A DNA stretch of 44,713 nucleotides from Clostridioides difficile (GTDB lineage: Bacteria; Bacillota; Clostridia; Peptostreptococcales; Peptostreptococcaceae). This document shows positions 20,680 through 31,282 of the stretch, in pieces. A program made the translations under genes and the position numbers. The stretch spans positions 1 through 44,713 of the forward strand of contig NZ_OEZH01000174.1 in assembly GCF_900243075.1 (NCBI RefSeq), read 5' to 3'. The first letter of the stretch is position 1. Each line of letters begins with the position of its first letter. A model generated the notes under the pieces. The model worked only from the letters and a program-made list of their open reading frames with translations. It was not told where the DNA came from and did not search any database.

Positions 20680-21432
20680 ATGAAAGAAATATTAAAAATA
20701 AAAAATATATCAAAAGATTATGGAATAAAAGGATTTAGAACAAATGTATTAAAAAATATATCTCTTACAGTCAATGAAGGTGATTTTATATCGATAATGG
20801 GTCCATCTGGTGCAGGGAAGACAACTTTATTAAATCTAATGTCTACACTTGACAAACAAACCTCAGGAGAAATAATACTAGATGGGGTTAACATATCAAA
20901 AGTAAAAAATAATGAACTATCAAAATTAAGAAGAGAAAAAATAGGGTTTATATTTCAAGATTATAATCTATTAGACAATATGAAACTAATGGATAATATA
21001 GCACTTCCTTTAGCATTAGGAAAAAAGAAAAGTAAGGATATAGAAGCAAAGGTATTTTCTATATCCAAAAAATTTGGATTAGAAAATCATTTAGATAAAT
21101 ATCCTTATCAATTATCAGGAGGACAAAAACAAAGAGGTGCAGCAGCTAGGTCATTAATTACAAATCCAGCAGTTATATTTGCTGATGAACCAACAGGTGC
21201 TTTAGACTCTAAATCAGCGTATGAACTTCTAGAATCATTAGAAAAAATAAACAGAGAAAACAATGCTACTATTATAATGATTACACATGACCCTTTAACT
21301 GCAAGTTATTCAAATGAAGTGTATATGATAAATGATGGAAATATAAAGTGTAAATTAAACAAAGGAAGTAGTAGAAAAGAATTTTATGGAAAAATCATGG
21401 ATATGTTAGCTTCTATGGGAGGTGAAATGTAA
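20680..21432 (+). CDS. BceA-like ABC transporter ATP-binding protein
   Basis: A 250-residue ATPase of the MacB/BceA family. Walker A is GPSGAGKTT (residues about 41-49), the Q-loop FIFQDYNLLDNM, signature LSGGQKQR, Walker B VIFADEPTGALD and H-loop MITHD. It pairs with the large permease beginning directly after its stop. Such BceAB pairs protect against bacitracin, lantibiotics and similar cell-wall peptides and also act as sensors for the partner kinase. The actual peptide is not predictable from sequence. ATG follows GGAGG. Confidence 0.9.
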   Translation: MKEILKIKNISKDYGIKGFRTNVLKNISLTVNEGDFISIMGPSGAGKTTLLNLMSTLDKQTSGEIILDGVNISKVKNNELSKLRREKIGFIFQDYNLLDNMKLMDNIALPLALGKKKSKDIEAKVFSISKKFGLENHLDKYPYQLSGGQKQRGAAARSLITNPAVIFADEPTGALDSKSAYELLESLEKINRENNATIIMITHDPLTASYSNEVYMINDGNIKCKLNKGSSRKEFYGKIMDMLASMGGEM

Positions 21433-23340
21433 GTGAGTATACTTGGAATTGCTTATAATAATTTTAAGAGTAACATAAGAACGTATCTAGCATTTTTTAT
21501 ATCTATGGTTTTTTCAGTAGTCGTACTAACTAATTTTGAGTTATTAAGATATGGTGATGCTATAAATGTATTACAAGGAGAAAACAAAAAATTTACATTA
21601 TCAGTATTGATATCTGTGATAATGATACTATCAGTGTTTTTATTTTTCTTTATATGGTATGCGACAAACATATTTTTTAAGAATAGGTCTAAAGAAATAG
21701 GAATATTGTCCTTTATGGGCTTAGATTTATATACTATAGGAAAAATATTTTTTGTAGAAAATATGCTTATAGGAATAAGTTCTTGTATAACAGGAATAAT
21801 TATAGGGATAATAACATCTAGATTTTTTCAGGTAGTGATAATAAAGTTATCTGGATTTGATATAAAAGTATCTAATGGACTTAGCATAGAGGCTATACTG
21901 TATGCTACTTTAATATTTATTTCTATATTTATAATAATGGCTGTAAAAGGTTTTATAACAATATGTAGAAGTAGTGTAATAAATTTAATTAATACATCTA
22001 AAAAGCAAGAAAAAATACCAAAGGTAGGAATAGGTATATATATATTAGCTATAGTATCAATTATAGTAATAGGATATGGCTATTATCTTTCTACTAATCT
22101 AGGAAGTGGAAATATAACTAGTGTAATACCTGTTATAGGTATAATAATAATAGGTACTTATGGTTTATTTAAATCAGTTATGCCTGTTGTATTTGACATT
22201 ATAATAAAAAATAAAAAAATATTATTCAAGGGAAATAATATAATTGCAATAAATAACATAAACTACAGACTAAATAAAAACTACAAAACTTATGCTATAA
22301 TAGCTATAATTGTAACTGCTACAATATCAACTCTTGGTGCTTCAGTTGCAATGAAGTATATACATCAGAATGCCCAAGAACAAAGAAATATATATACTGT
22401 AAGCATAGTTTCAATGGATAAAGATGAAGTGAATAAAAAACAAATAGAGAATGTAATAAAAGATACTAATAAGATAAAATATTCAGTAAATCCAGAACTA
22501 ACAGTTTTAGAAAAAAAAGACAGCAAAAATATTTACAACAAAATAGATGCTATAATGAAATATAGTGATTTTTGTAATATTCTTAAAGTAAATGGTAATG
22601 GTGAAGAATTAAAAGAGTATGGTAAGGAATTGATTAGAGGAAATAATGTAATAGAGTTAAAAAGTCCTCAAACGATAGTATCAATGACTACAAAAGAAGC
22701 TAAGATAAAACTTGATGGGCAGTTGTATAATATTTCAAAGGGAAAGATAAAGGTTCCAGTATTGGGTACAGGATTTAATCAAAGTATTATAGTAGTAAAT
22801 GATAATGCATATTTCAAATTAAGAGATAAGGGTCAGCAAGTATATTTTTATGGAGCGAAGGTGTATCAAGAAGAAAATAGCCAAGCAATGTTCAGTAATA
22901 TTGAGAAGAATTTAAGTTTAAAAAACGGATATATTAGAAATGGATATAAAGCTCTAAATGAGGGTCAATGGATGAAATTTGCATATGTAGTGCTTGTGTT
23001 TTTATTCTTAGTATTTGCAATTGTAGCTGGAAGTATAATATATATGAAAATATATAGTGATGCTTATGAAGATAAAGACAAATACAAAATTTTATTAAAA
23101 ATAGGTACTACAGAAAAAGATATAAATATAGCTATACTTAAAGAAGTAGCCATATTTTATACTTTACCAATGTTAAGTGCAACGATATCTAGTTATTTTG
23201 CATTGAGATTAGCAGGAGATTTATTGATGGCCAATTTATTTGGTATATATATACTAAGTTTAGTGATATGCTTGATAATATTCATAATATATGGAGCAGT
23301 ATCTGTTAATAAGTTTAAGAGTATAGTATATAAAAATTAA
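21433..23340 (+). CDS. BceB-like ABC transporter permease
   Basis: A 635-residue FtsX-family permease with the ten-helix layout of BceB. There are about six to seven helices in the first 300 residues, then a large extracytoplasmic domain (residues about 305-515) thought to bind the target peptide, then three helices at the end. The N-terminal FKSNIRTYLAFFISMVFSVVVLTNFE and the NRSKEIGILSFMGL segment are family-typical. GTG start immediately after the bceA stop (TAAGTG). Works with the ATPase before it and, by analogy, with the histidine kinase downstream. Confidence 0.9.
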   Translation: MSILGIAYNNFKSNIRTYLAFFISMVFSVVVLTNFELLRYGDAINVLQGENKKFTLSVLISVIMILSVFLFFFIWYATNIFFKNRSKEIGILSFMGLDLYTIGKIFFVENMLIGISSCITGIIIGIITSRFFQVVIIKLSGFDIKVSNGLSIEAILYATLIFISIFIIMAVKGFITICRSSVINLINTSKKQEKIPKVGIGIYILAIVSIIVIGYGYYLSTNLGSGNITSVIPVIGIIIIGTYGLFKSVMPVVFDIIIKNKKILFKGNNIIAINNINYRLNKNYKTYAIIAIIVTATISTLGASVAMKYIHQNAQEQRNIYTVSIVSMDKDEVNKKQIENVIKDTNKIKYSVNPELTVLEKKDSKNIYNKIDAIMKYSDFCNILKVNGNGEELKEYGKELIRGNNVIELKSPQTIVSMTTKEAKIKLDGQLYNISKGKIKVPVLGTGFNQSIIVVNDNAYFKLRDKGQQVYFYGAKVYQEENSQAMFSNIEKNLSLKNGYIRNGYKALNEGQWMKFAYVVLVFLFLVFAIVAGSIIYMKIYSDAYEDKDKYKILLKIGTTEKDINIAILKEVAIFYTLPMLSATISSYFALRLAGDLLMANLFGIYILSLVICLIIFIIYGAVSVNKFKSIVYKN

Positions 23341-23357
23341 TTGATAGATTAGTAAAG

Positions 23358-23391
23358 ACAAAGGAGATTCTTATAATAAGAGTCTCTTTGT
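23358..23391 (+). terminator. Long hairpin between bceAB-like genes and the two-component system
   Basis: ACAAAGGAGATTCTTAT pairs with ATAAGAGTCTCTTTGT over most of its length. There is no long T run after it, so it may be a partial terminator or mRNA stabiliser that lets bceAB be expressed at a different level from the regulator genes. Confidence 0.55.
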
Positions 23392-23432
23392 TGATTAACT
23401 AGACAATTTGGGTAATAAATTTATATAAAATA

Positions 23433-23441
23433 TGTTATGAT
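23433..23441 (+). promoter_or_regulatory. Extended -10 promoter of the response regulator
   Basis: TGTTATGAT (TGn plus TATGAT) lies about 50 nt before the response regulator start, downstream of the hairpin at 23358. No good -35 box is visible. Confidence 0.45.
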
Positions 23442-23491
23442 ATTAATAATTAATAGAATACTGAAATATTAGGATAATGGAGAATATACAA

Positions 23492-24172
23492 ATGTATAGA
23501 ATTTTATTAGTAGAAGACGATATTGATTTATCAAAAGAGATTGCGTTGGCACTTGAGAGATGGGGATTTAAAGTAGAATTAATTGATGATTTTGAGGTAG
23601 TCTTAGATGAATTTATGGATAAAAAACCAGATGTAGTACTTTTGGATGTAAATTTACCCTTATATAATGGATTTTACTGGTGCGAAAAAATAAGAGCTAT
23701 TTCAAATGTTCCATTAATATTTTTATCATCAAGAGATTCTGATATGGACTTAATAATGGGTATAAATAATGGAGCAGATGATTATATTACCAAACCATTT
23801 TCTATAGACATATTGGTTACCAAAATAAATGGTATAATAAGAAGAGTCTATAATTATAGTGATTCTAATAGTATTTTGTATTGTGAAGATTTGATGTTTG
23901 ATGTGGGGAAAGGGATTATAAAACATAAGTATAAGGATAAAAGTATAGAGTTGACTAAAAACGAAATAAAAATTTTAACATTATTATTAAAAAATAAGAA
24001 TAGGGTTGTATCAAGGGAAAGTCTTATGATGACTCTATGGGATAATGATGAGTTTGTGACAGACAATGCACTTACTGTAAATATGAATAGATTGAGAAGT
24101 AAAGTTAAAGAACTAGGTTTTGATGATTTTATAAAAACTAAGAAGGGGATAGGATATATAATACAATGCTAG
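23492..24172 (+). CDS. OmpR-family response regulator (BceR-like)
   Basis: A 226-residue regulator: receiver domain with acidic pair E8-D9-D10 and phosphorylation site Asp52 (VVLLDVNLP), Lys in DDYITKPFS, and a C-terminal winged helix (residues about 125-226, SIELTKNEIKILTLLLKNKNRVVSRESLM). ATG 23492 has GGAGA at good distance and gives the usual N-terminus; ATG 23477 would overlap that site. It overlaps the kinase start by 7 bases. Likely target is the TTACA-N4-TGTAA site upstream of the transporter genes. Confidence 0.9.
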   Translation: MYRILLVEDDIDLSKEIALALERWGFKVELIDDFEVVLDEFMDKKPDVVLLDVNLPLYNGFYWCEKIRAISNVPLIFLSSRDSDMDLIMGINNGADDYITKPFSIDILVTKINGIIRRVYNYSDSNSILYCEDLMFDVGKGIIKHKYKDKSIELTKNEIKILTLLLKNKNRVVSRESLMMTLWDNDEFVTDNALTVNMNRLRSKVKELGFDDFIKTKKGIGYIIQC

Positions 24173-25185
24173 TAAAATATTTAAAAGGTAGACTTAAGTA
24201 TATTATCCTTTTTTTATCTATTGTTAGCATAATAAATATTTACCTATTTGCTATAAATATATTTAAAAACCAATATTCAGAATTGATATACTTGGATTTT
24301 CTAGCTTTGCTCATAATAACAGTATTTTTTATTATAGATTATATAAACTTTAAAAATAGCTATAAAGATTTATGTAAGTATCTAGAAAATAATGATGATA
24401 TGGATAGTTCCTTGATTAGTGGACAATCCTTTGAAGAAAATATCATAAGAGGTATTATTGAAAATTTGAAATTAAAGAATAATGATGATATAAAAAATTA
24501 CAAACAATCTTTAAAAGAATTAGATGAATACATAGCTAAATGGGTTCATGAAATAAAAATTCCAATATCATCTTTGAGTATAATTACAGATAGATTAAAT
24601 AATGTAGAAGATAGTATAGATATTAAGAATCATATCGCAAAAATAAACTTTTTAGTAAACTCTATTTTATATAGCAGTAGAAGTAATAGTATGTTTGAGG
24701 ACATATTTATGAACAAAGTTAATTTAGAAAAATTGATAAAATCCTCTGTAAAGAATAACTCATTTTTACTTATAAAAAACAATATTGAAGTTACTTTAAA
24801 TGACTTAAATTATGCTGTTTATACAGATTCTAAATGTATGGCATATATTTTAGACCAAATTATTAATAATGCTATAAAATACTCAAAAGAAGTTGGAAAA
24901 ATTGAATTTAATGCAAAAACATTAGAAAATGGAGTAGTGTTATCTATAAAAGATTACGGTATTGGTATAAATGAAGAGGATATATGTAGAGTTTTTGATA
25001 AAGGATTTACAGGAACAAATGGGAGAAATAGATTATATAAATCTACAGGAATGGGATTATATTTTGCAAAAAAGATGATGGATAATTTGGGTCATAAGGT
25101 TGATGTGTATTCAGAAAATGGTGTTTATACCATTTTTAATATTTATTTTTATGATATATCGGATTATTTAAATTTAGATAATTGA
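24166..25185 (+). CDS. Intramembrane-sensing histidine kinase (BceS-like)
   Basis: A 339-residue kinase with two N-terminal membrane helices (residues about 12-32 and 38-58) separated by a very short loop, and no extracellular sensor domain. That is the mark of BceS-type kinases, which sense through their ABC transporter. The phosphoacceptor is His128 in KWVHEIKIPISSL; the ATPase part has N box DQIINNAIKYS, DYGIGI and TGMGLYFAKKM. Translationally coupled to the response regulator. Confidence 0.92.
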   Translation: MLVKYLKGRLKYIILFLSIVSIINIYLFAINIFKNQYSELIYLDFLALLIITVFFIIDYINFKNSYKDLCKYLENNDDMDSSLISGQSFEENIIRGIIENLKLKNNDDIKNYKQSLKELDEYIAKWVHEIKIPISSLSIITDRLNNVEDSIDIKNHIAKINFLVNSILYSSRSNSMFEDIFMNKVNLEKLIKSSVKNNSFLLIKNNIEVTLNDLNYAVYTDSKCMAYILDQIINNAIKYSKEVGKIEFNAKTLENGVVLSIKDYGIGINEEDICRVFDKGFTGTNGRNRLYKSTGMGLYFAKKMMDNLGHKVDVYSENGVYTIFNIYFYDISDYLNLDN

Positions 25186-25251
25186 AAAGGTTAAATTATA
25201 AATTGAGCAAAGCCTAATGTTAATATATTGAAAATGAGAATGAGGTCTGTT

Positions 25252-27819
25252 ATGAAAAGTCTAAAAGTAGTAAAAAAATATTTGATTTCATACAAATTAA
25301 GATCACTTGCAATTATCATAAGCATGATTTTTTCTATAATGTTAATAGTTGGAACGAGTGTTCTTAGATATACTGATAATAATCTAGATTTACAGACATT
25401 AAAATATAAAAATGGACCTTACCATGTTTTATTTAATGGAATTAATAAAGAACAATTAAATAAAATTCAATCAAATAGTAGTATTGAACACATAGGATTA
25501 CAATATCTATATAATCAAACTTCAAAAGAAGAAAAGCAAAATATAGATATAATGAGTGCAAATAATGATTATTTATTGAGTGGATCTAAAATAAAAGAAG
25601 GGCGATTGCCAAAAAATAAAAATGAAATAGTTGTAGAGGACTGGATTTTAAAACTCTTAGGATTGGATTTTAAATTAAATCAAGAAATTACTTTAAGGGT
25701 TAATGATAATGATGGAAAATATAAAGAAGAAAAGTTTTTTATTGTTGGTATATTAAATGATATAGCTTCAAATAAATTGTATGGAAGAAGGAATTTATAC
25801 TTAAACTTTAAGGAAAAAGATAGCAATGAAACCTTTGCATATATAGAATTTAAGCAACATGTCAATATAGAAAAAGAAATAGAAAAAATAACAACTTCGA
25901 TTAACATTCCAAGAGAAAATGTTCACTTGCAAAGTGATATTATCAGTTTAGAAAATATAAATAACAAAATTAATTTTAATGATTTACAATTTGTGATTAT
26001 AATAAGCTCTATATGTGGATTGATTATATATGGTATTTTTAACATTTCAATATACGACAGAATCAAAGACTATAGCATTTTAAAAGCTGTTGGATGTAAT
26101 AATTATAAAATTTTTAAACTTGTTTTTATTGAGCTTATACTTATGTACATAATTTCTATACCTATAGGTGTAGTATTTGGGTTGTTAGGAGCATTTGGTA
26201 TAAATAGTATATCAAATAAAGTTAATACCAATATAATAATTCATGGAACATTAGTAGAATTTAAAGTTATTATACCAATATCTATTATTTTAATATCTAT
26301 ATTATTTATTGGAATTGTAATATTTTTAATATCAGTTTTATTATATAAACAAATAAGAAAGATTTCAATTATAGATGGAATAAATAAAAGGCTTAGTACT
26401 GCAAATTTAGAAAAAAGCATTATATCAATAACTACTTTAAGGAAATTTATGAAAACATATATAGCCCTATCTTTTAAAAATATATTTAGAAACAAAAAGA
26501 CATTTTTAATTATATTACTTTCACTAAGTATATGTGGAATAACATTTATTGTTTTGTCATACAAACTTTCAATAGAAAAAGAAAGAGGGAATTATCAAAA
26601 CTGGGAATTACATTCTAATTCTGATTTCCAAATAGATGTATATAATGAGAATAAATCAAAAGGAATATCAGAAACCTATCTGAATAAACTTAAAAAACTA
26701 GATGGCATAAAAGATATAGATACCTGCAAACTAATACCATCAAAAATGATTTTAAATGAAGAAGATATAAAAAATCAAAAATATTTTGATAATTTAAACT
26801 TAGGTGTTAAGGATATGTACTTTAATTCTTATTTGGATAAAGATAAAAATACAAATGAGCTTATTCTAAAAAATAGTTTGAGGGGATATAATGATTCAGC
26901 TTTAAATAAATTAAAAAGATATACTATAAAAGGAGAGATAAATATTAAAGATATGAAAGAGCATGGAGATGCAATTTTATATATTCCACAGACTAACAAT
27001 GAAAGTATTAGAGTATTGCCTCAAGGAGAAAGTGTAGTCAATATACAACCAGGAGATTTAGTTACTATTAAGTTTAGAGAAAATAAAGTATTAGACAATA
27101 AATATTATAAATTAGAGGATTTAAATGAAAAGTATCTTTACAAAACATTTAAGATAGTAGCTATAGTTTCTTATGATTATATGTATGATGGGTTTGAAAG
27201 AAGCTACTTAAGTCCTAATTTAATCTTAAGTGAAGATACTTTTGAAAGTGTTACAGGTGTAATAGATTATTATTCAATCAATATTGATATTAAAAATGGA
27301 TACAATCATAAAACAATTGAAAGGAATATATCTAAAATTACATCAACAGGAGATAATATTAGACCAAGAAATTTGGTACAAGAGAGGACTAATTTAGAAT
27401 CTTTATATAAAAAAAGCAAAATTTATAGTAAAGGTATAAATTTGGTTATATTTATTATAGTTATCATTAATATAATTAATAACATTAACTATAATATAAT
27501 ATCAAGAAAAGATGAGTTATCAATTTTAAGGTCAATGGGATTAGGTGAAATTAAACTAAAAAGAATGCTATTAAGTGAAGGTTTATTTTATTGGTTCCTA
27601 TCAAACATTATTATTATATTTACATCTAGTATTTTACAAAGGATAATTTACAACTTATTGAATATAAGTAGCATAGGCATTAAATTTAAGACTAATTATA
27701 TAGATTATATCTTAATTATATTTATAAACTTAATAGTTATCATTTTAGCAATATATTTTTCTATTAAAAAGATTAAAGAAGTTAACTTAATAGATGGGAT
27801 AAGAGATTTCAATAGATAA
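25252..27819 (+). CDS. FtsX-family ABC transporter permease, large
   Basis: An 855-residue permease with two FtsX modules: a helix at residues about 15-40, an extracytoplasmic domain, three helices near 245-380, then a second copy (helix near 415-440, second outer domain, three helices at about 715-850). This double layout is typical of Gram-positive MacB/YknZ-like and lipoprotein-release-like exporters and differs from the BceB form upstream. ATG 25252 follows GAGG with 6-nt spacing; earlier in-frame TTG and ATG codons lack a site. Its ATPase follows at 27844. Substrate unknown; a peptide or antimicrobial is likely from context. Confidence 0.85.
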   Translation: MKSLKVVKKYLISYKLRSLAIIISMIFSIMLIVGTSVLRYTDNNLDLQTLKYKNGPYHVLFNGINKEQLNKIQSNSSIEHIGLQYLYNQTSKEEKQNIDIMSANNDYLLSGSKIKEGRLPKNKNEIVVEDWILKLLGLDFKLNQEITLRVNDNDGKYKEEKFFIVGILNDIASNKLYGRRNLYLNFKEKDSNETFAYIEFKQHVNIEKEIEKITTSINIPRENVHLQSDIISLENINNKINFNDLQFVIIISSICGLIIYGIFNISIYDRIKDYSILKAVGCNNYKIFKLVFIELILMYIISIPIGVVFGLLGAFGINSISNKVNTNIIIHGTLVEFKVIIPISIILISILFIGIVIFLISVLLYKQIRKISIIDGINKRLSTANLEKSIISITTLRKFMKTYIALSFKNIFRNKKTFLIILLSLSICGITFIVLSYKLSIEKERGNYQNWELHSNSDFQIDVYNENKSKGISETYLNKLKKLDGIKDIDTCKLIPSKMILNEEDIKNQKYFDNLNLGVKDMYFNSYLDKDKNTNELILKNSLRGYNDSALNKLKRYTIKGEINIKDMKEHGDAILYIPQTNNESIRVLPQGESVVNIQPGDLVTIKFRENKVLDNKYYKLEDLNEKYLYKTFKIVAIVSYDYMYDGFERSYLSPNLILSEDTFESVTGVIDYYSINIDIKNGYNHKTIERNISKITSTGDNIRPRNLVQERTNLESLYKKSKIYSKGINLVIFIIVIINIINNINYNIISRKDELSILRSMGLGEIKLKRMLLSEGLFYWFLSNIIIIFTSSILQRIIYNLLNISSIGIKFKTNYIDYILIIFINLIVIILAIYFSIKKIKEVNLIDGIRDFNR

Positions 27820-27843
27820 AATAATTATAAAAGGGTGAATTAA

Positions 27844-28506
27844 ATGACTATACTAAAAACAAAAAATTTAACAAAGATGTATGGTTTAAAAGAAAATAAT
27901 TTAATAGTACTAAAAGATATAAATATTAGTATTAATAAGGGTGAATTTATATCGATAATTGGGCCAAGTGGTAGTGGAAAATCTACATTATTACATTTAC
28001 TAGGAGGTTTAGATCGACCAAGTAGAGGAGAAATAATTGTAAATGGTGTAGATATAAATTCTTTTTCAGATAAAAAATTAGCAGAATATAGGAGAACAGA
28101 AATTGGATTTGTATTTCAGCAGTTTAATTTGCTTCCTATATTAAGTGTCAAGGAGAACATAGAGCTTCCAATGATGATTGGTGAAGAAGAAATAGATTCA
28201 AATTATATAGAAGAACTTATTTTTATGTTAGGTTTAGAAGAGAAGAAAGATTATCTTCCAAGTAAATTATCTGGAGGACAACAACAAAGAGTTGCAATAG
28301 GACGGGCTTTATCAACAAAACCTAGTATTATATTAGCAGACGAGCCAACTGGAAATCTTGATAGTAAAACAAGTAATGAAGTTATTGAGCTTTTTAAACT
28401 TTCAAGCAATAAATATAATCAAACTATAATTTTAGTAACCCATGATATGAATATAGCTAAGAAAGCGGATAGAGTAATCGAAATAATTGATGGAAATATA
28501 ATTTAA
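27844..28506 (+). CDS. MacB/LolD-like ABC transporter ATP-binding protein
   Basis: A 220-residue ATPase partner of the preceding permease. Motifs in order: Walker [10 protein letters not shown] (residues about 40-48), Q-loop [12 protein letters not shown], signature LSGGQQQR, Walker [14 protein letters not shown]-loop LVTHD. It starts 24 nt after the permease stop and is followed within 20 nt by the subtilase gene, so these genes form one transcription unit. Confidence 0.92.
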
Positions 28507-28525
28507 AAAGCTAGAAGGTGAGATT

Positions 28526-29506
28526 TTGAAAAATAAGATAAAAGTTGCTGTGTTAGATACTGGTATAGATAAAAATCATGACTTTTTAAGAGAAAGTATA
28601 GTTGGAGGAATTTCCTTTAAAACTAAAAATGGTTATATTATGATTACAGAAGATTATGAAGATAAAAATGGCCATGGAACATCATGTTCATCAATAATAA
28701 AAAGAGAATTTAATAATGTAGAATTGTTTATAGTTAAAGTTTTAGATGATTTTGGAAATAGCAATATACAAGTATTGGAAGAGGGATTAAAATTTGTACT
28801 TAATACAGATGTAAAAATTGTAAATTTAAGTTTATCAGTTCTAGGAAATAAATCAATTGAAGATTTATATAGTATATGTGAAAGGCTAAAACAAAAAGGA
28901 AAAATAATCGTATGTTCAGTCGAGAATGGCTTTGAATCAAGCTATCCAGCACAATTTGACAATGTTATAGGGGTTAGAGGATTTGTATTAGAGAGAGAAA
29001 GTGCTATTTGGTATAATAAGGATTATAGAATTCAATGTGTAATGGATAATAATTCTTATAAATTATTTGGAAAGAGTAATAGTCAGTCAGCTGCAAAGCT
29101 TACTGGTAAAATAGCTGAAATACTATATAGATTTCCAAATATTAACTTAGAAGATTTAAGTGAAAAATTAGAAAAATTGTCAATGAGGAATCATTGGACA
29201 GAAAAAGATTTAGAGAGAAGTAAGAGATTCCCTGAAATTCAACAATATGATAAGTCTATAAATTATAAATTGGTTAAAGACTTAATAAATATATTAAAAA
29301 ATGAATTAAACATAACTGAGAGTATAGATGATGTTCATGATATAATTTTATTTAATGATTATGTTGGCTTAAATGATAACAACTGTTTTAATATATTAAA
29401 AAAAATAGAGAATAATTTCAATTTAAAATTTGATTATATGAGCATATCAAGGTATGATCTTATATCGATATATTCGTTAATGCACTTAGTTACTAAATAT
29501 ATGTAA
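28526..29506 (+). CDS. Cytoplasmic subtilase with degenerate acyl-carrier-like C-terminus
   Basis: A 326-residue S8-family serine protease starting at TTG with AAGGTGAG upstream. The triad is complete: Asp11 (VAVLDTGID), His50 (KNGHGTSC) and Ser186 (KSNSQSAAKLTG), with oxyanion Asn134 (VENGFESSYPA). There is no signal peptide and no propeptide, so it should act in the cytoplasm, like the leader peptidases of some lantibiotic systems. Residues about 245-326 resemble a phosphopantetheine carrier fold, but the DSL serine is replaced (GLNDN, Asp284), so it should not be loaded. Carrier-related proteins occur in clostridial peptide maturation clusters. The gene lies between two ABC transporters. 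The protease call is firm; the carrier call is a pattern judgement. Confidence 0.8.
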   Translation: MKNKIKVAVLDTGIDKNHDFLRESIVGGISFKTKNGYIMITEDYEDKNGHGTSCSSIIKREFNNVELFIVKVLDDFGNSNIQVLEEGLKFVLNTDVKIVNLSLSVLGNKSIEDLYSICERLKQKGKIIVCSVENGFESSYPAQFDNVIGVRGFVLERESAIWYNKDYRIQCVMDNNSYKLFGKSNSQSAAKLTGKIAEILYRFPNINLEDLSEKLEKLSMRNHWTEKDLERSKRFPEIQQYDKSINYKLVKDLINILKNELNITESIDDVHDIILFNDYVGLNDNNCFNILKKIENNFNLKFDYMSISRYDLISIYSLMHLVTKYM

Positions 29507-29545
29507 GTGCATAAATAAAAATTTTACTAGATGGTGGGCGAATAA

Positions 29546-31282
29546 ATGACTAATTTTAATAATAAAAATTTATTTAGGTTTTTGAAGTTAATAATAAAAC
29601 AAAATAAAACAAAATTAATAGTAGCATTTATTGTTACATTTGTAATTTCTATACTAGATCTTTCAATGCCTCAGATAACAAGGATGATTATAGATGATGG
29701 AATAGAGTATGGTAATATAGAAATACTAATTAAATTAGTTATTATATATATATTAGTCACAATATTTTCCTCAATTTTTGAGATTTTATTAGCATATTTA
29801 TATTCTTCAATTAAAAATAAAGCAACAGTTAATTTAAAGGTTAAGTTATTAAATCATATTTCTAAATTATCTGGTAGGTATTACTCAAATATCAAAACAG
29901 GAAATATTTTATCTGTGATTAATACTGATATGTATATGTTAGAAAACTTTAGTGCAGAACTTATATTTACAATGTTAGTAAATATATTTACTGCAATTAT
30001 ATCATTGTATTTCTTAGTGAAAATACAAACAGATTTATTTTTGGTTGTATGTATATTACAAATTATATTAACTATTTTACAGGGAAAAATTACAAAAGTA
30101 ATAACCCTTAAAACTAGTGAAATAAGAAATGATGGTGGAAATTTATCAAATTTAATACAAGAATACATTTCTAATATTATGAATATTATAGTATCTAAGT
30201 CGAGAATGAAATTTTTTTCTTCTTATTTAAATAAAGAAAGAAATCTAATTCATAAATTTCTGAAACTAGATATAATTATTTCGGGAAATTTTGCAATATC
30301 AGGTATTATAACTGGTTTTATCACTATATCAATATTTGGATATGGTGGTTACAAAATAATAAAAGGAAATATGACACTAGGAGAACTATTAGCATTTCAA
30401 ATGTATAGTGGAATGTTAATAGGGCCATGTGTATCTATAGTGAGAGCGAATACTAGGATTGGGCAGGCGAAAGCTTCTATTAATAGAGTCTATTCAATCC
30501 TAGATGAAAAAGTAGATATAAAAGTGAATAATTTAGGATACAGACTGGTCAAAAATGATTGTAATATTATAGAATTTAAAAATGTATATTTTAAATATGA
30601 CAAAGATGGTAAATATATATTAAATGATATGAATTTGAAATTTGAAAAAGGAAAAATAAGTGCAATTGTAGGAGGAAGCGGTTGTGGTAAATCTACAATA
30701 GTTAATTTAATATATCGTTTTTGGGATATTAACGATGGATTAATATTATTTGACAAATTTAAAATTGATGAAATTAACTTGAAATCCCTCAGAAATAGTA
30801 TTAATATAGTTACGCAAGATGTACTAATATTTGATGATACCATAAAAAATAATATTATATTAAATTATAAAATTAATGATAATGAGCTAAATGAAATAAT
30901 CCATAAGGTAGGCTTAAATGATTTTATTGATAGTTTAAATTATGGATTAGAAACTATAGTTGGTGAAAGAGGAACTAAAATATCAGGAGGACAAAAGCAA
31001 CGGATTGCTCTAGCTAGAGCAATAATTAGTGATAGAGATATATTAATTTTTGATGAAGCAACTTCAGCTTTAGATAACATATCACAAGAGAAAATTTTAA
31101 AAAATATTAGTTTCTATTTAAAAAATAAAATTGTAATAATTATAGCGCATAGGCTTTCAACTATAAAGGAAGCAGATATAATATATGTAATAGAAAATGG
31201 CAGGGTTATTGAATCAGGAAATGATGATATACTATCATCTAAGAATGGTTTATACAAAACATTGATTTCAGCGATAAATTAA
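29546..31282 (+). CDS. ABC exporter, fused permease and ATPase
   Basis: A 578-residue half-transporter of the MsbA/LanT-like exporter class. Six membrane helices in residues about 20-310 are followed by an ATPase domain with Walker A GGSGCGKST (376-384), signature ISGGQKQR (about 479-486), Walker B ILIFDEATSALD and H-loop IAHRLST. It lacks the N-terminal C39 peptidase domain of bacteriocin exporters, which fits a system where a separate protease (the subtilase before it) removes a leader. It ends the unit and is followed by a strong terminator. Probable substrate is a peptide, but no precursor gene is seen nearby. Confidence 0.88.
   Translation: MTNFNNKNLFRFLKLIIKQNKTKLIVAFIVTFVISILDLSMPQITRMIIDDGIEYGNIEILIKLVIIYILVTIFSSIFEILLAYLYSSIKNKATVNLKVKLLNHISKLSGRYYSNIKTGNILSVINTDMYMLENFSAELIFTMLVNIFTAIISLYFLVKIQTDLFLVVCILQIILTILQGKITKVITLKTSEIRNDGGNLSNLIQEYISNIMNIIVSKSRMKFFSSYLNKERNLIHKFLKLDIIISGNFAISGIITGFITISIFGYGGYKIIKGNMTLGELLAFQMYSGMLIGPCVSIVRANTRIGQAKASINRVYSILDEKVDIKVNNLGYRLVKNDCNIIEFKNVYFKYDKDGKYILNDMNLKFEKGKISAIVGGSGCGKSTIVNLIYRFWDINDGLILFDKFKIDEINLKSLRNSINIVTQDVLIFDDTIKNNIILNYKINDNELNEIIHKVGLNDFIDSLNYGLETIVGERGTKISGGQKQRIALARAIISDRDILIFDEATSALDNISQEKILKNISFYLKNKIVIIIAHRLSTIKEADIIYVIENGRVIESGNDDILSSKNGLYKTLISAIN

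What the first reader, a model, noticed from the sequence alone, without database searches (positions are those of the whole stretch)
25252..31282. Possible undescribed peptide system: FtsX transporter, cytoplasmic subtilase with dead carrier tail, ABC exporter
The subtilase has a full triad but no secretion signal or propeptide, and its last 80 residues look like an acyl carrier domain whose serine is lost (GLNDN). It sits between an FtsX-type transporter and an exporter lacking a peptidase domain. That is the layout of leader removal plus export, yet no modification enzyme or precursor gene is in view. The dead carrier domain may be a docking module for a peptide or partner.
Basis: partly seen in the sequence, partly recalled or inferred. 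Interest (0 to 1): 0.75.

Follow-up and report, generated by a model that had tools for sequence, protein, structure and literature searches.

The report
Peptide-trimming protease with dead carrier tail
In a Clostridioides genome, four neighbouring genes look like the leftover back half of a small modified-peptide factory: a cell-interior protease carrying a disabled carrier-protein tail, plus two transporters, whose relatives elsewhere sit beside the missing peptide and the enzymes that would modify it.

Summary
Window 28526-29506 encodes a 326-residue cytoplasmic S8 protease with intact triad (D11, H50, S186) and a C-terminal acyl-carrier fold lacking the phosphopantetheine serine (0 of 30 homologues). 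It sits in a tight block with an FtsX permease, a LolD-type ATPase and a peptidase-less ABC exporter. Of 19 tailed loci away from folC (window included), 14 carry radical SAM/SPASM genes, 14 a 47-62-residue Cys-containing candidate precursor, 13 both. A C. difficile plasmid (p_TW11) has a compact set: two radical SAM genes, a 59-residue peptide, protease with tail, exporter. So this is the leader-protease/export part of a radical-SAM RiPP system. The window copy is an orphan: one congener lacks the block at the same site; another keeps a scar with pieces of FtsX and apparently a radical SAM gene. Closest known: CLI_3235/CcpM clusters such as SacP23 (separate acyl-carrier-related protein and subtilase) and QhpDEF. 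I found no description of the fusion or the precursor family: a new variant of a known kind. Eleven conserved folC-linked homologues without radical SAM genes remain unexplained. What the dead carrier does (docking?) is untested.

The parts
28526..29506 (+). Cytoplasmic S8 (QhpE-like) protease with C-terminal acyl-carrier-like domain, 326 aa; catalytic codons at 28556 (D11), 28673 (H50), 29081 (S186)
   Evidence: Pfam S8 E 3.4e-19; NCBIfam QhpE model 93.2 bits, below its 165-bit cut-off; triad 30/30
29231..29503 (+). Modelled tail, residues 236-326: four-helix acyl-carrier fold (from about residue 247) without the phosphopantetheine Ser (D284 here, 29375-29377)
   Evidence: profile match to stand-alone TIGR04069-type proteins, E 2.4e-5, probability 76%
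25252..27819 (+). FtsX/MacB-type ABC permease, 855 aa (possible start at 25228)
   Evidence: Pfam FtsX E 1.3e-20, two stretches; a member of the same protein cluster in 17 of 19 tailed non-folC loci, in pieces in L043, not seen on the 4 kb contig L059
27844..28506 (+). LolD/MacB-type ATPase, presumed partner of the FtsX permease
   Evidence: LolD model E 1.9e-70, 237 bits, below the equivalog cut-off of 308
29546..31282 (+). ABC exporter (MsbA/HlyB-like core) without a peptidase domain, 578 aa
25184..31506 (.). Extent of the block that is absent at the same chromosomal site in a congener (G004)
   Evidence: blastn: window 25183 and 31507 map to L183 4806 and 4588, 217 bp between
25459..25553 (+). 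Stretch of FtsX still recognisable (91%) in the deletion scar of a second congener (G010)

Best explanation
The four genes are the processing-and-transport part of a radical-SAM RiPP system. In complete relatives one or more radical SAM/SPASM maturases cross-link a short Cys-containing precursor in the cytoplasm (inferred). The S8 protease then cuts off the leader inside the cell, perhaps just after the conserved Gln (inferred). The peptidase-less ABC exporter secretes the core (inferred). The FtsX/LolD pair gives immunity or a second export route (inferred). The C-terminal domain is an acyl-carrier fold (predicted) without the Ser that takes phosphopantetheine (shown); most likely it is a docking module for the modified precursor, a maturase or the exporter (inferred). 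In the window copy the maturase and precursor are missing, so it is an orphaned remnant with intact reading frames, acting if at all as transporter/immunity or in trans.
For: Radical SAM genes in 14 of 19 tailed non-folC loci (window included), against 1 weak hit in the 74 subtilase loci that are not family members (2 of 80 in all, the other being member L076). Precursor-family peptides in 14 of the same 19 loci and in 16 of 71 genomes. p_TW11 has rSAM-rSAM-59 aa peptide-protease/tail-exporter; that peptide, annotated only as hypothetical, matches the precursor profile (19.1 bits, a one-sequence search). QhpE is the best NCBIfam match of the window protein and matches all 30 homologues; QhpE cuts a radical-SAM-modified precursor in the cytoplasm before export by QhpF (PMC7876137, passages). 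Orphan state: block absent in G004; G010 scar with FtsX and radical SAM pieces; the own-genome paralogue at C145 lacks the 2.9 kb precursor/radical SAM segment that G009 has.
Against: No biochemistry. 5 of the 19 loci show no radical SAM gene (window, L039, L044, and the contig-limited L042 and L060). Eleven folC-linked homologues have no radical SAM gene in view yet are conserved (dN/dS 0.10-0.19 in five pairs), so the family may have another job. The cleavage site is a guess. The SacP23 authors place subtilase cleavage before, not after, modification. At C145 against G009 the four genes have higher dN/dS (0.06-0.16) than four flanking genes (0.01-0.07). The radical SAM piece in the G010 scar is only 17 residues (E 1.1e-4 in a tiny search); in the control, run on a stretch that cuts the match short, 0 of 200 resampled sequences reach its score, but narrowly (21.9 against at most 21.6 bits).
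Confidence: 0.75

Rival explanations
1. The window block is not a remnant but a stand-alone self-protection or detoxification unit: FtsX/LolD and the exporter pump out a rival's peptide, and the protease degrades what gets in.
For: Block intact without maturase or precursor at two loci of one genome; at the second (C145, against G009) the four genes are under purifying selection, dN/dS 0.06-0.16; the window block lies directly downstream of a BceAB-like transporter (my label) and a two-component system.
Against: The nearest relatives of the window protease include loci with maturase and precursor (L043, L045); the G010 scar has an apparent radical SAM piece at the same site, which suggests loss.
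Confidence: 0.3
2. The protease acts in trans on another precursor of the same genome, such as the one in the complete cluster at C41.
For: One precursor-family gene found in the genome, at C41.
Against: C41 has its own protease (336 aa), only about 30% identical to the window's and in another subclade.
Confidence: 0.12
3. The carrier-like tail is only a structural cap or remnant with no binding role.
For: More variable than the protease domain (pooled dN/dS 0.154 against 0.109 in folC-type genes of eight Clostridioides genomes).
Against: Aligned in 30 of 30 full-length homologues (which were chosen as full-length), with N286 invariant; still constrained in orphans; the stand-alone equivalent is a gene of its own in CcpM-type clusters.
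Confidence: 0.25
4. An anti-phage or other defence system built on a subtilase.
For: Weak PADLOC hits to subtilase/IetS models (4.7e-6 and 1.4e-4); a weak hit to the S8 anti-phage model IteS in NCBIfam (0.18).
Against: The protease hits cover only the generic S8 core (residues 5-125); the ATPase and exporter hits are of the generic ABC/AAA kind; radical SAM and precursor partners in relatives.
Confidence: 0.03

Closest known systems
CLI_3235/CcpM-type sactipeptide clusters (SacP23 of Paenibacillus polymyxa, PMC10731318; Roseburia intestinalis, PMC4573289)
   Same: Radical SAM maturase, subtilase, acyl-carrier-related protein (TIGR04069) and ABC transporter; Cys-rich precursor in SacP23. Of loci fetched here by TIGR04069, L220 has CcpM (615 bits), TIGR04066, a TIGR04069-type protein (65 bits, just under its cut-off), a CLI_3235 precursor, a QhpE-like protease and an exporter; L221 has LolD and an FtsX-like gene as well.
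   Different: There the carrier-related protein and subtilase are separate genes. Here they are one protein; the precursors give no CLI_3235 match and the radical SAM proteins scanned score far below the CcpM cut-off.
QhpD-QhpE-QhpF maturation of the QHNDH gamma subunit (PMC7876137, passages)
   Same: Cytoplasmic S8 protease that removes the leader of a radical-SAM thioether-bridged polypeptide before ABC export.
   Different: 93 bits against a 165-bit cut-off; the 219-position QhpE model aligns only to residues 6-217, so it has no counterpart of the carrier tail.
PapB-type ranthipeptide maturases
   Same: One radical SAM enzyme of the L055 cluster resembles PapB (184 bits); its relatives occur in other loci.
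   Different: Below the 340-bit cut-off; bond type unknown.
ElxP-type cytoplasmic lanthipeptide proteases (PMC10885120, passages)
   Same: Cytoplasmic S8 leader protease; Gln at -1 matters for ElxP, and 15 of 19 precursor rows have a Gln near the end of the conserved leader.
   Different: No lanthipeptide synthetase was looked for or noticed here; no carrier tail known to me (recalled).

Membership tests
QhpE (NF049966) | Curated score cut-off 165 bits | tested here: not met
   93.2 bits
QhpE (NF049966) | S8 protease starting at the catalytic core, without signal or propeptide | tested here: met
   Pfam S8 from residue 3 of 326
QhpE (NF049966) | Acts once, on a radical-SAM-modified precursor | not testable with these tools
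   Needs biochemistry
Acyl carrier protein | Four-helix carrier fold | tested here: met
   (predicted structure and profile match)
Acyl carrier protein | Phosphopantetheine-accepting Ser at the start of helix II | tested here: not met
   0 of 30 have Ser at residue 284
TIGR04069 acyl carrier-related protein | Curated score cut-off 70 bits | tested here: not met
   4 of 30 members match at E up to 1, best 8.6e-4; window protein not matched; own genome no match at E 1e-3
TIGR04069 acyl carrier-related protein | Homology by profile comparison | tested here: inconclusive
   hhalign E 2.4e-5, probability 76% over 81 columns, shallow alignments of 7 and 3 rows
CLI_3235/CcpM RiPP system | CLI_3235 precursor family | tested here: not met
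   0 of 19 precursors match TIGR04065 at E 0.1
CLI_3235/CcpM RiPP system | CcpM maturase (TIGR04068, cut-off 500 bits) | tested here: not met
   best of the five radical SAM proteins scanned: 127 bits; control, L219 and L220 reach 567 and 615
CLI_3235/CcpM RiPP system | TIGR04066 partner protein | not tested
   no dedicated search in the tailed loci; present in L219, L220 and, below cut-off, L221
Radical-SAM RiPP cluster | Precursor gene beside maturase gene | tested here: met
   met in relatives: 13 of 19 tailed non-folC loci have both; not met in the window locus itself
PCAT (peptidase-containing exporter) | N-terminal C39 peptidase | tested here: not met
   no peptidase domain among the exporter's Pfam matches at E up to 1

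The most novel reading that the evidence does not exclude
Serine-less carrier folds, fused here and stand-alone in CcpM-type clusters, are a general docking device of radical-SAM RiPP pathways: a phosphopantetheine-free carrier that hands a modified precursor to its leader protease, playing for proteolysis the part that RRE domains play for modification.
Probability: 0.3. Interest if true: 0.75.

Novelty: new variant of a known kind. Interest (0 to 1): 0.56.

Why it matters
It ties the unexplained 'acyl carrier-related' protein of CcpM-type systems to leader proteolysis: what are two genes there are one polypeptide here, so the two parts probably work together. It also points to a RiPP family, not found in the papers searched, in Clostridioides and relatives, chromosomal and on a mobilizable C. 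difficile plasmid, with AgrB beside it in three loci, and it offers compact clusters for expression and a direct test of what a dead carrier does.

Tried and rejected
Single-protein scan of genome contigs found no relative; the alignment query did, though mostly general subtilases (80 loci kept, six of them family members). Promoter scan was uninformative: 86 found against 65 in shuffles. Pfam gave no PqqD/RRE hit at E 0.1 on the five radical SAM proteins scanned, so an N-terminal RRE, which their sequence suggests to me, is recall only. Defence reading: only generic PADLOC hits. Acquisition rather than loss of the window block was considered: the G010 scar favours loss, but G004 alone cannot decide. 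Precursors matched no NCBIfam or Pfam family well (single members to lachnocin 0.0083, inorganic pyrophosphatase 0.042, Homez 0.027, a zinc finger 0.048). Phage records gave S8-core hits only, none covering 80% of the query. L067 (its two subtilases show no match to the tail profile; radical SAM genes and a 42-residue precursor-like peptide present) was dropped from the 30-row alignment and the 19-locus counts; counting it, radical SAM is 15 of 20 and precursor 15 of 20. Three weaker matches that also run past residue 300 (G063:C3, two of G058/G064) were not aligned; two of them hold stop codons. The S8 tree sets the two CcpM-system proteases outside the tailed clade, but both are long branches, so no origin of the fusion is claimed.
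Full report
What is there. The window is contig C154 of a 4.2 Mb genome. Its genus is taken as Clostridioides because loci of that name (L072, L073) lie on contigs of the same length as those of same-genus genomes G006 and G008. Window 25252-31282 holds four closely spaced genes: an FtsX-type permease, a LolD-type ATPase, an S8 protease and an ABC exporter. The protease starts at its catalytic core; D11, H50 and S186 are identical in all 30 full-length homologues aligned. Its best NCBIfam model is QhpE (93.2 bits, cut-off 165), which all 30 match at E up to 1.

Relatives and what stands beside them. Among 71 genomes of the family, 58 have some S8 match; 30 matches in 22 genomes run to query residue 322 or beyond. 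I looked at these 30 loci (the window is one; 29 fetched) plus L067, whose subtilases lack the tail. Eleven are folC-linked (below). Of the other 19, 14 have one or more radical SAM/SPASM genes: L041, L043, L045, L046, L050, L055, L059, L061-L066, L068 (Pfam and NCBIfam on examples). The five without are the window, L039, L044, and L042 and L060, which are limited by contig ends. Control: in the 80 subtilase loci, two have a radical SAM hit, one being the family member L076; five more of the 80 are family members without a hit (L070-L074), leaving 1 weak hit in 74 non-members.

The precursor. Small ORFs in the gaps of these loci form a family of 47-62 residues (42 in L067): a charged leader ending in V/I-x-x-Q (Gln in 15 of 19 rows, counted by eye) and a core with conserved Cys. 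They occur in 14 of the 19 loci; 13 have both parts (L059, a 4 kb contig, has radical SAM only; L044 has a precursor only). A profile search finds them in 16 of 71 genomes at E 0.01, in the window genome only at C41, inside a complete cluster. They match no curated family well. As an independent check, tblastn of the window protease against PLSDB gave three plasmids; the C. difficile one, p_TW11 (NZ_CP045225.1, mobilizable), is annotated radical SAM, radical SAM, 59-residue hypothetical protein, S8 peptidase, ABC transporter, with no FtsX gene in the stretch shown. The hypothetical protein fits the precursor profile (19.1 bits) and the peptidase has the tail.

The window copy is an orphan. In congener G004 the flanks of the block lie 217 bp apart. 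In congener G010 the same place keeps 95 bp of FtsX (91%), adjoining a 17-residue match to the radical SAM enzymes (E 1.1e-4 against this short stretch; 0 of 200 resampled sequences reach its score, narrowly, on a stretch that truncates the match). At a second locus of the window genome (C145, L039) the four genes stand alone, while G009 (L046) has a further 2.9 kb with precursor and two radical SAM genes at the junction. The four genes there show dN/dS 0.06-0.16 against 0.01-0.07 in four flanking genes, and lower dS (0.07-0.14 against 0.17-0.72), which may mean recent exchange of the block. Loss of the front half thus seems to recur; whether the rest still works is open.

A folC-linked branch. 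Eleven loci (8 Clostridioides genomes, 3 of genus g8) hold a tailed protease alone next to folC, forming one branch of the tree (fork support 93/95) inside an 18-row fork that also holds the window protein (98/99). None has a radical SAM match in the fetched stretch, all have a gene of the response-regulator cluster c6 upstream (the L040 copy is LytTR), triad intact, dN/dS 0.10-0.19 in five pairs against 0.04-0.06 for valS in two, tail 0.154 against protease 0.109 pooled over 28 pairs. Six of these genomes (G004-G007, G020, G022) have no detectable precursor. This is the main fact the RiPP model does not explain.

Comparison with the known. Published clusters with CcpM, TIGR04069, a subtilase and an ABC transporter exist: SacP23 (PMC10731318, passages and section 3.2 seen), whose table assigns leader removal to the subtilase and whose text places that cut before modification, and Roseburia (PMC4573289, one section read). 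In loci fetched here by TIGR04069, L220 holds CcpM (615 bits), TIGR04066, a TIGR04069-type protein, a CLI_3235 precursor, a QhpE-like protease and an ABC exporter; L219 holds CcpM, TIGR04066, TIGR04069 and an exporter but no S8 gene in the 13 kb seen; L221 and L222 (one genome) hold TIGR04066/CcpM-like genes, Cys-rich small ORFs and FtsX-like ORFs, and L221 also LolD and a QhpE-like protease. The fused tail and the stand-alone proteins match in profile comparison (E 2.4e-5, probability 76%). QhpDEF supplies the mechanistic model (PMC7876137 passages). Paper searches showed me no description of the fusion or of this precursor family; that covers the listings seen and open-licence PMC only.

Verdict.

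Noticed in passing
L040, L047-L049, L051-L054, L056-L058 (next to folC): Tailed protease without radical SAM match or precursor in view, conserved as one branch in 8 Clostridioides and 3 related genomes, with a response-regulator gene of cluster c6 upstream in all 11; function unknown.
   Followed up: partly
L041:5474-8424, also L050 and L061: AgrB-cluster gene (Pfam AgrB 6.8e-36 in L041) and, in L041 and L061, histidine-kinase and response-regulator genes of AgrC/AgrA type beside complete clusters; small ORFs that look like AgrD (recall): possible quorum control.
   Followed up: partly
L223 (NZ_CP045225.1 p_TW11): Compact five-gene RiPP set on a mobilizable C. difficile plasmid; the 59-residue peptide is annotated only as hypothetical protein.
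   Followed up: yes
window 20680-25185: BceAB-like transporter with two-component system directly upstream; kept in G004, which lacks the four-gene block.
   Followed up: no
L046:17142-17666: Short ORFs resembling pieces of a LytTR-type response regulator near the G009 cluster, apparently broken (resemblance by eye).
   Followed up: no
L185 and L186 (G010, G003): Precursor-family hits with FtsX-like genes and partial exporter, LolD or radical SAM matches nearby: further decayed clusters.
   Followed up: no
L067: Subtilases without the carrier tail in a locus with radical SAM genes and a precursor-like peptide: a possible unfused relative.
   Followed up: partly
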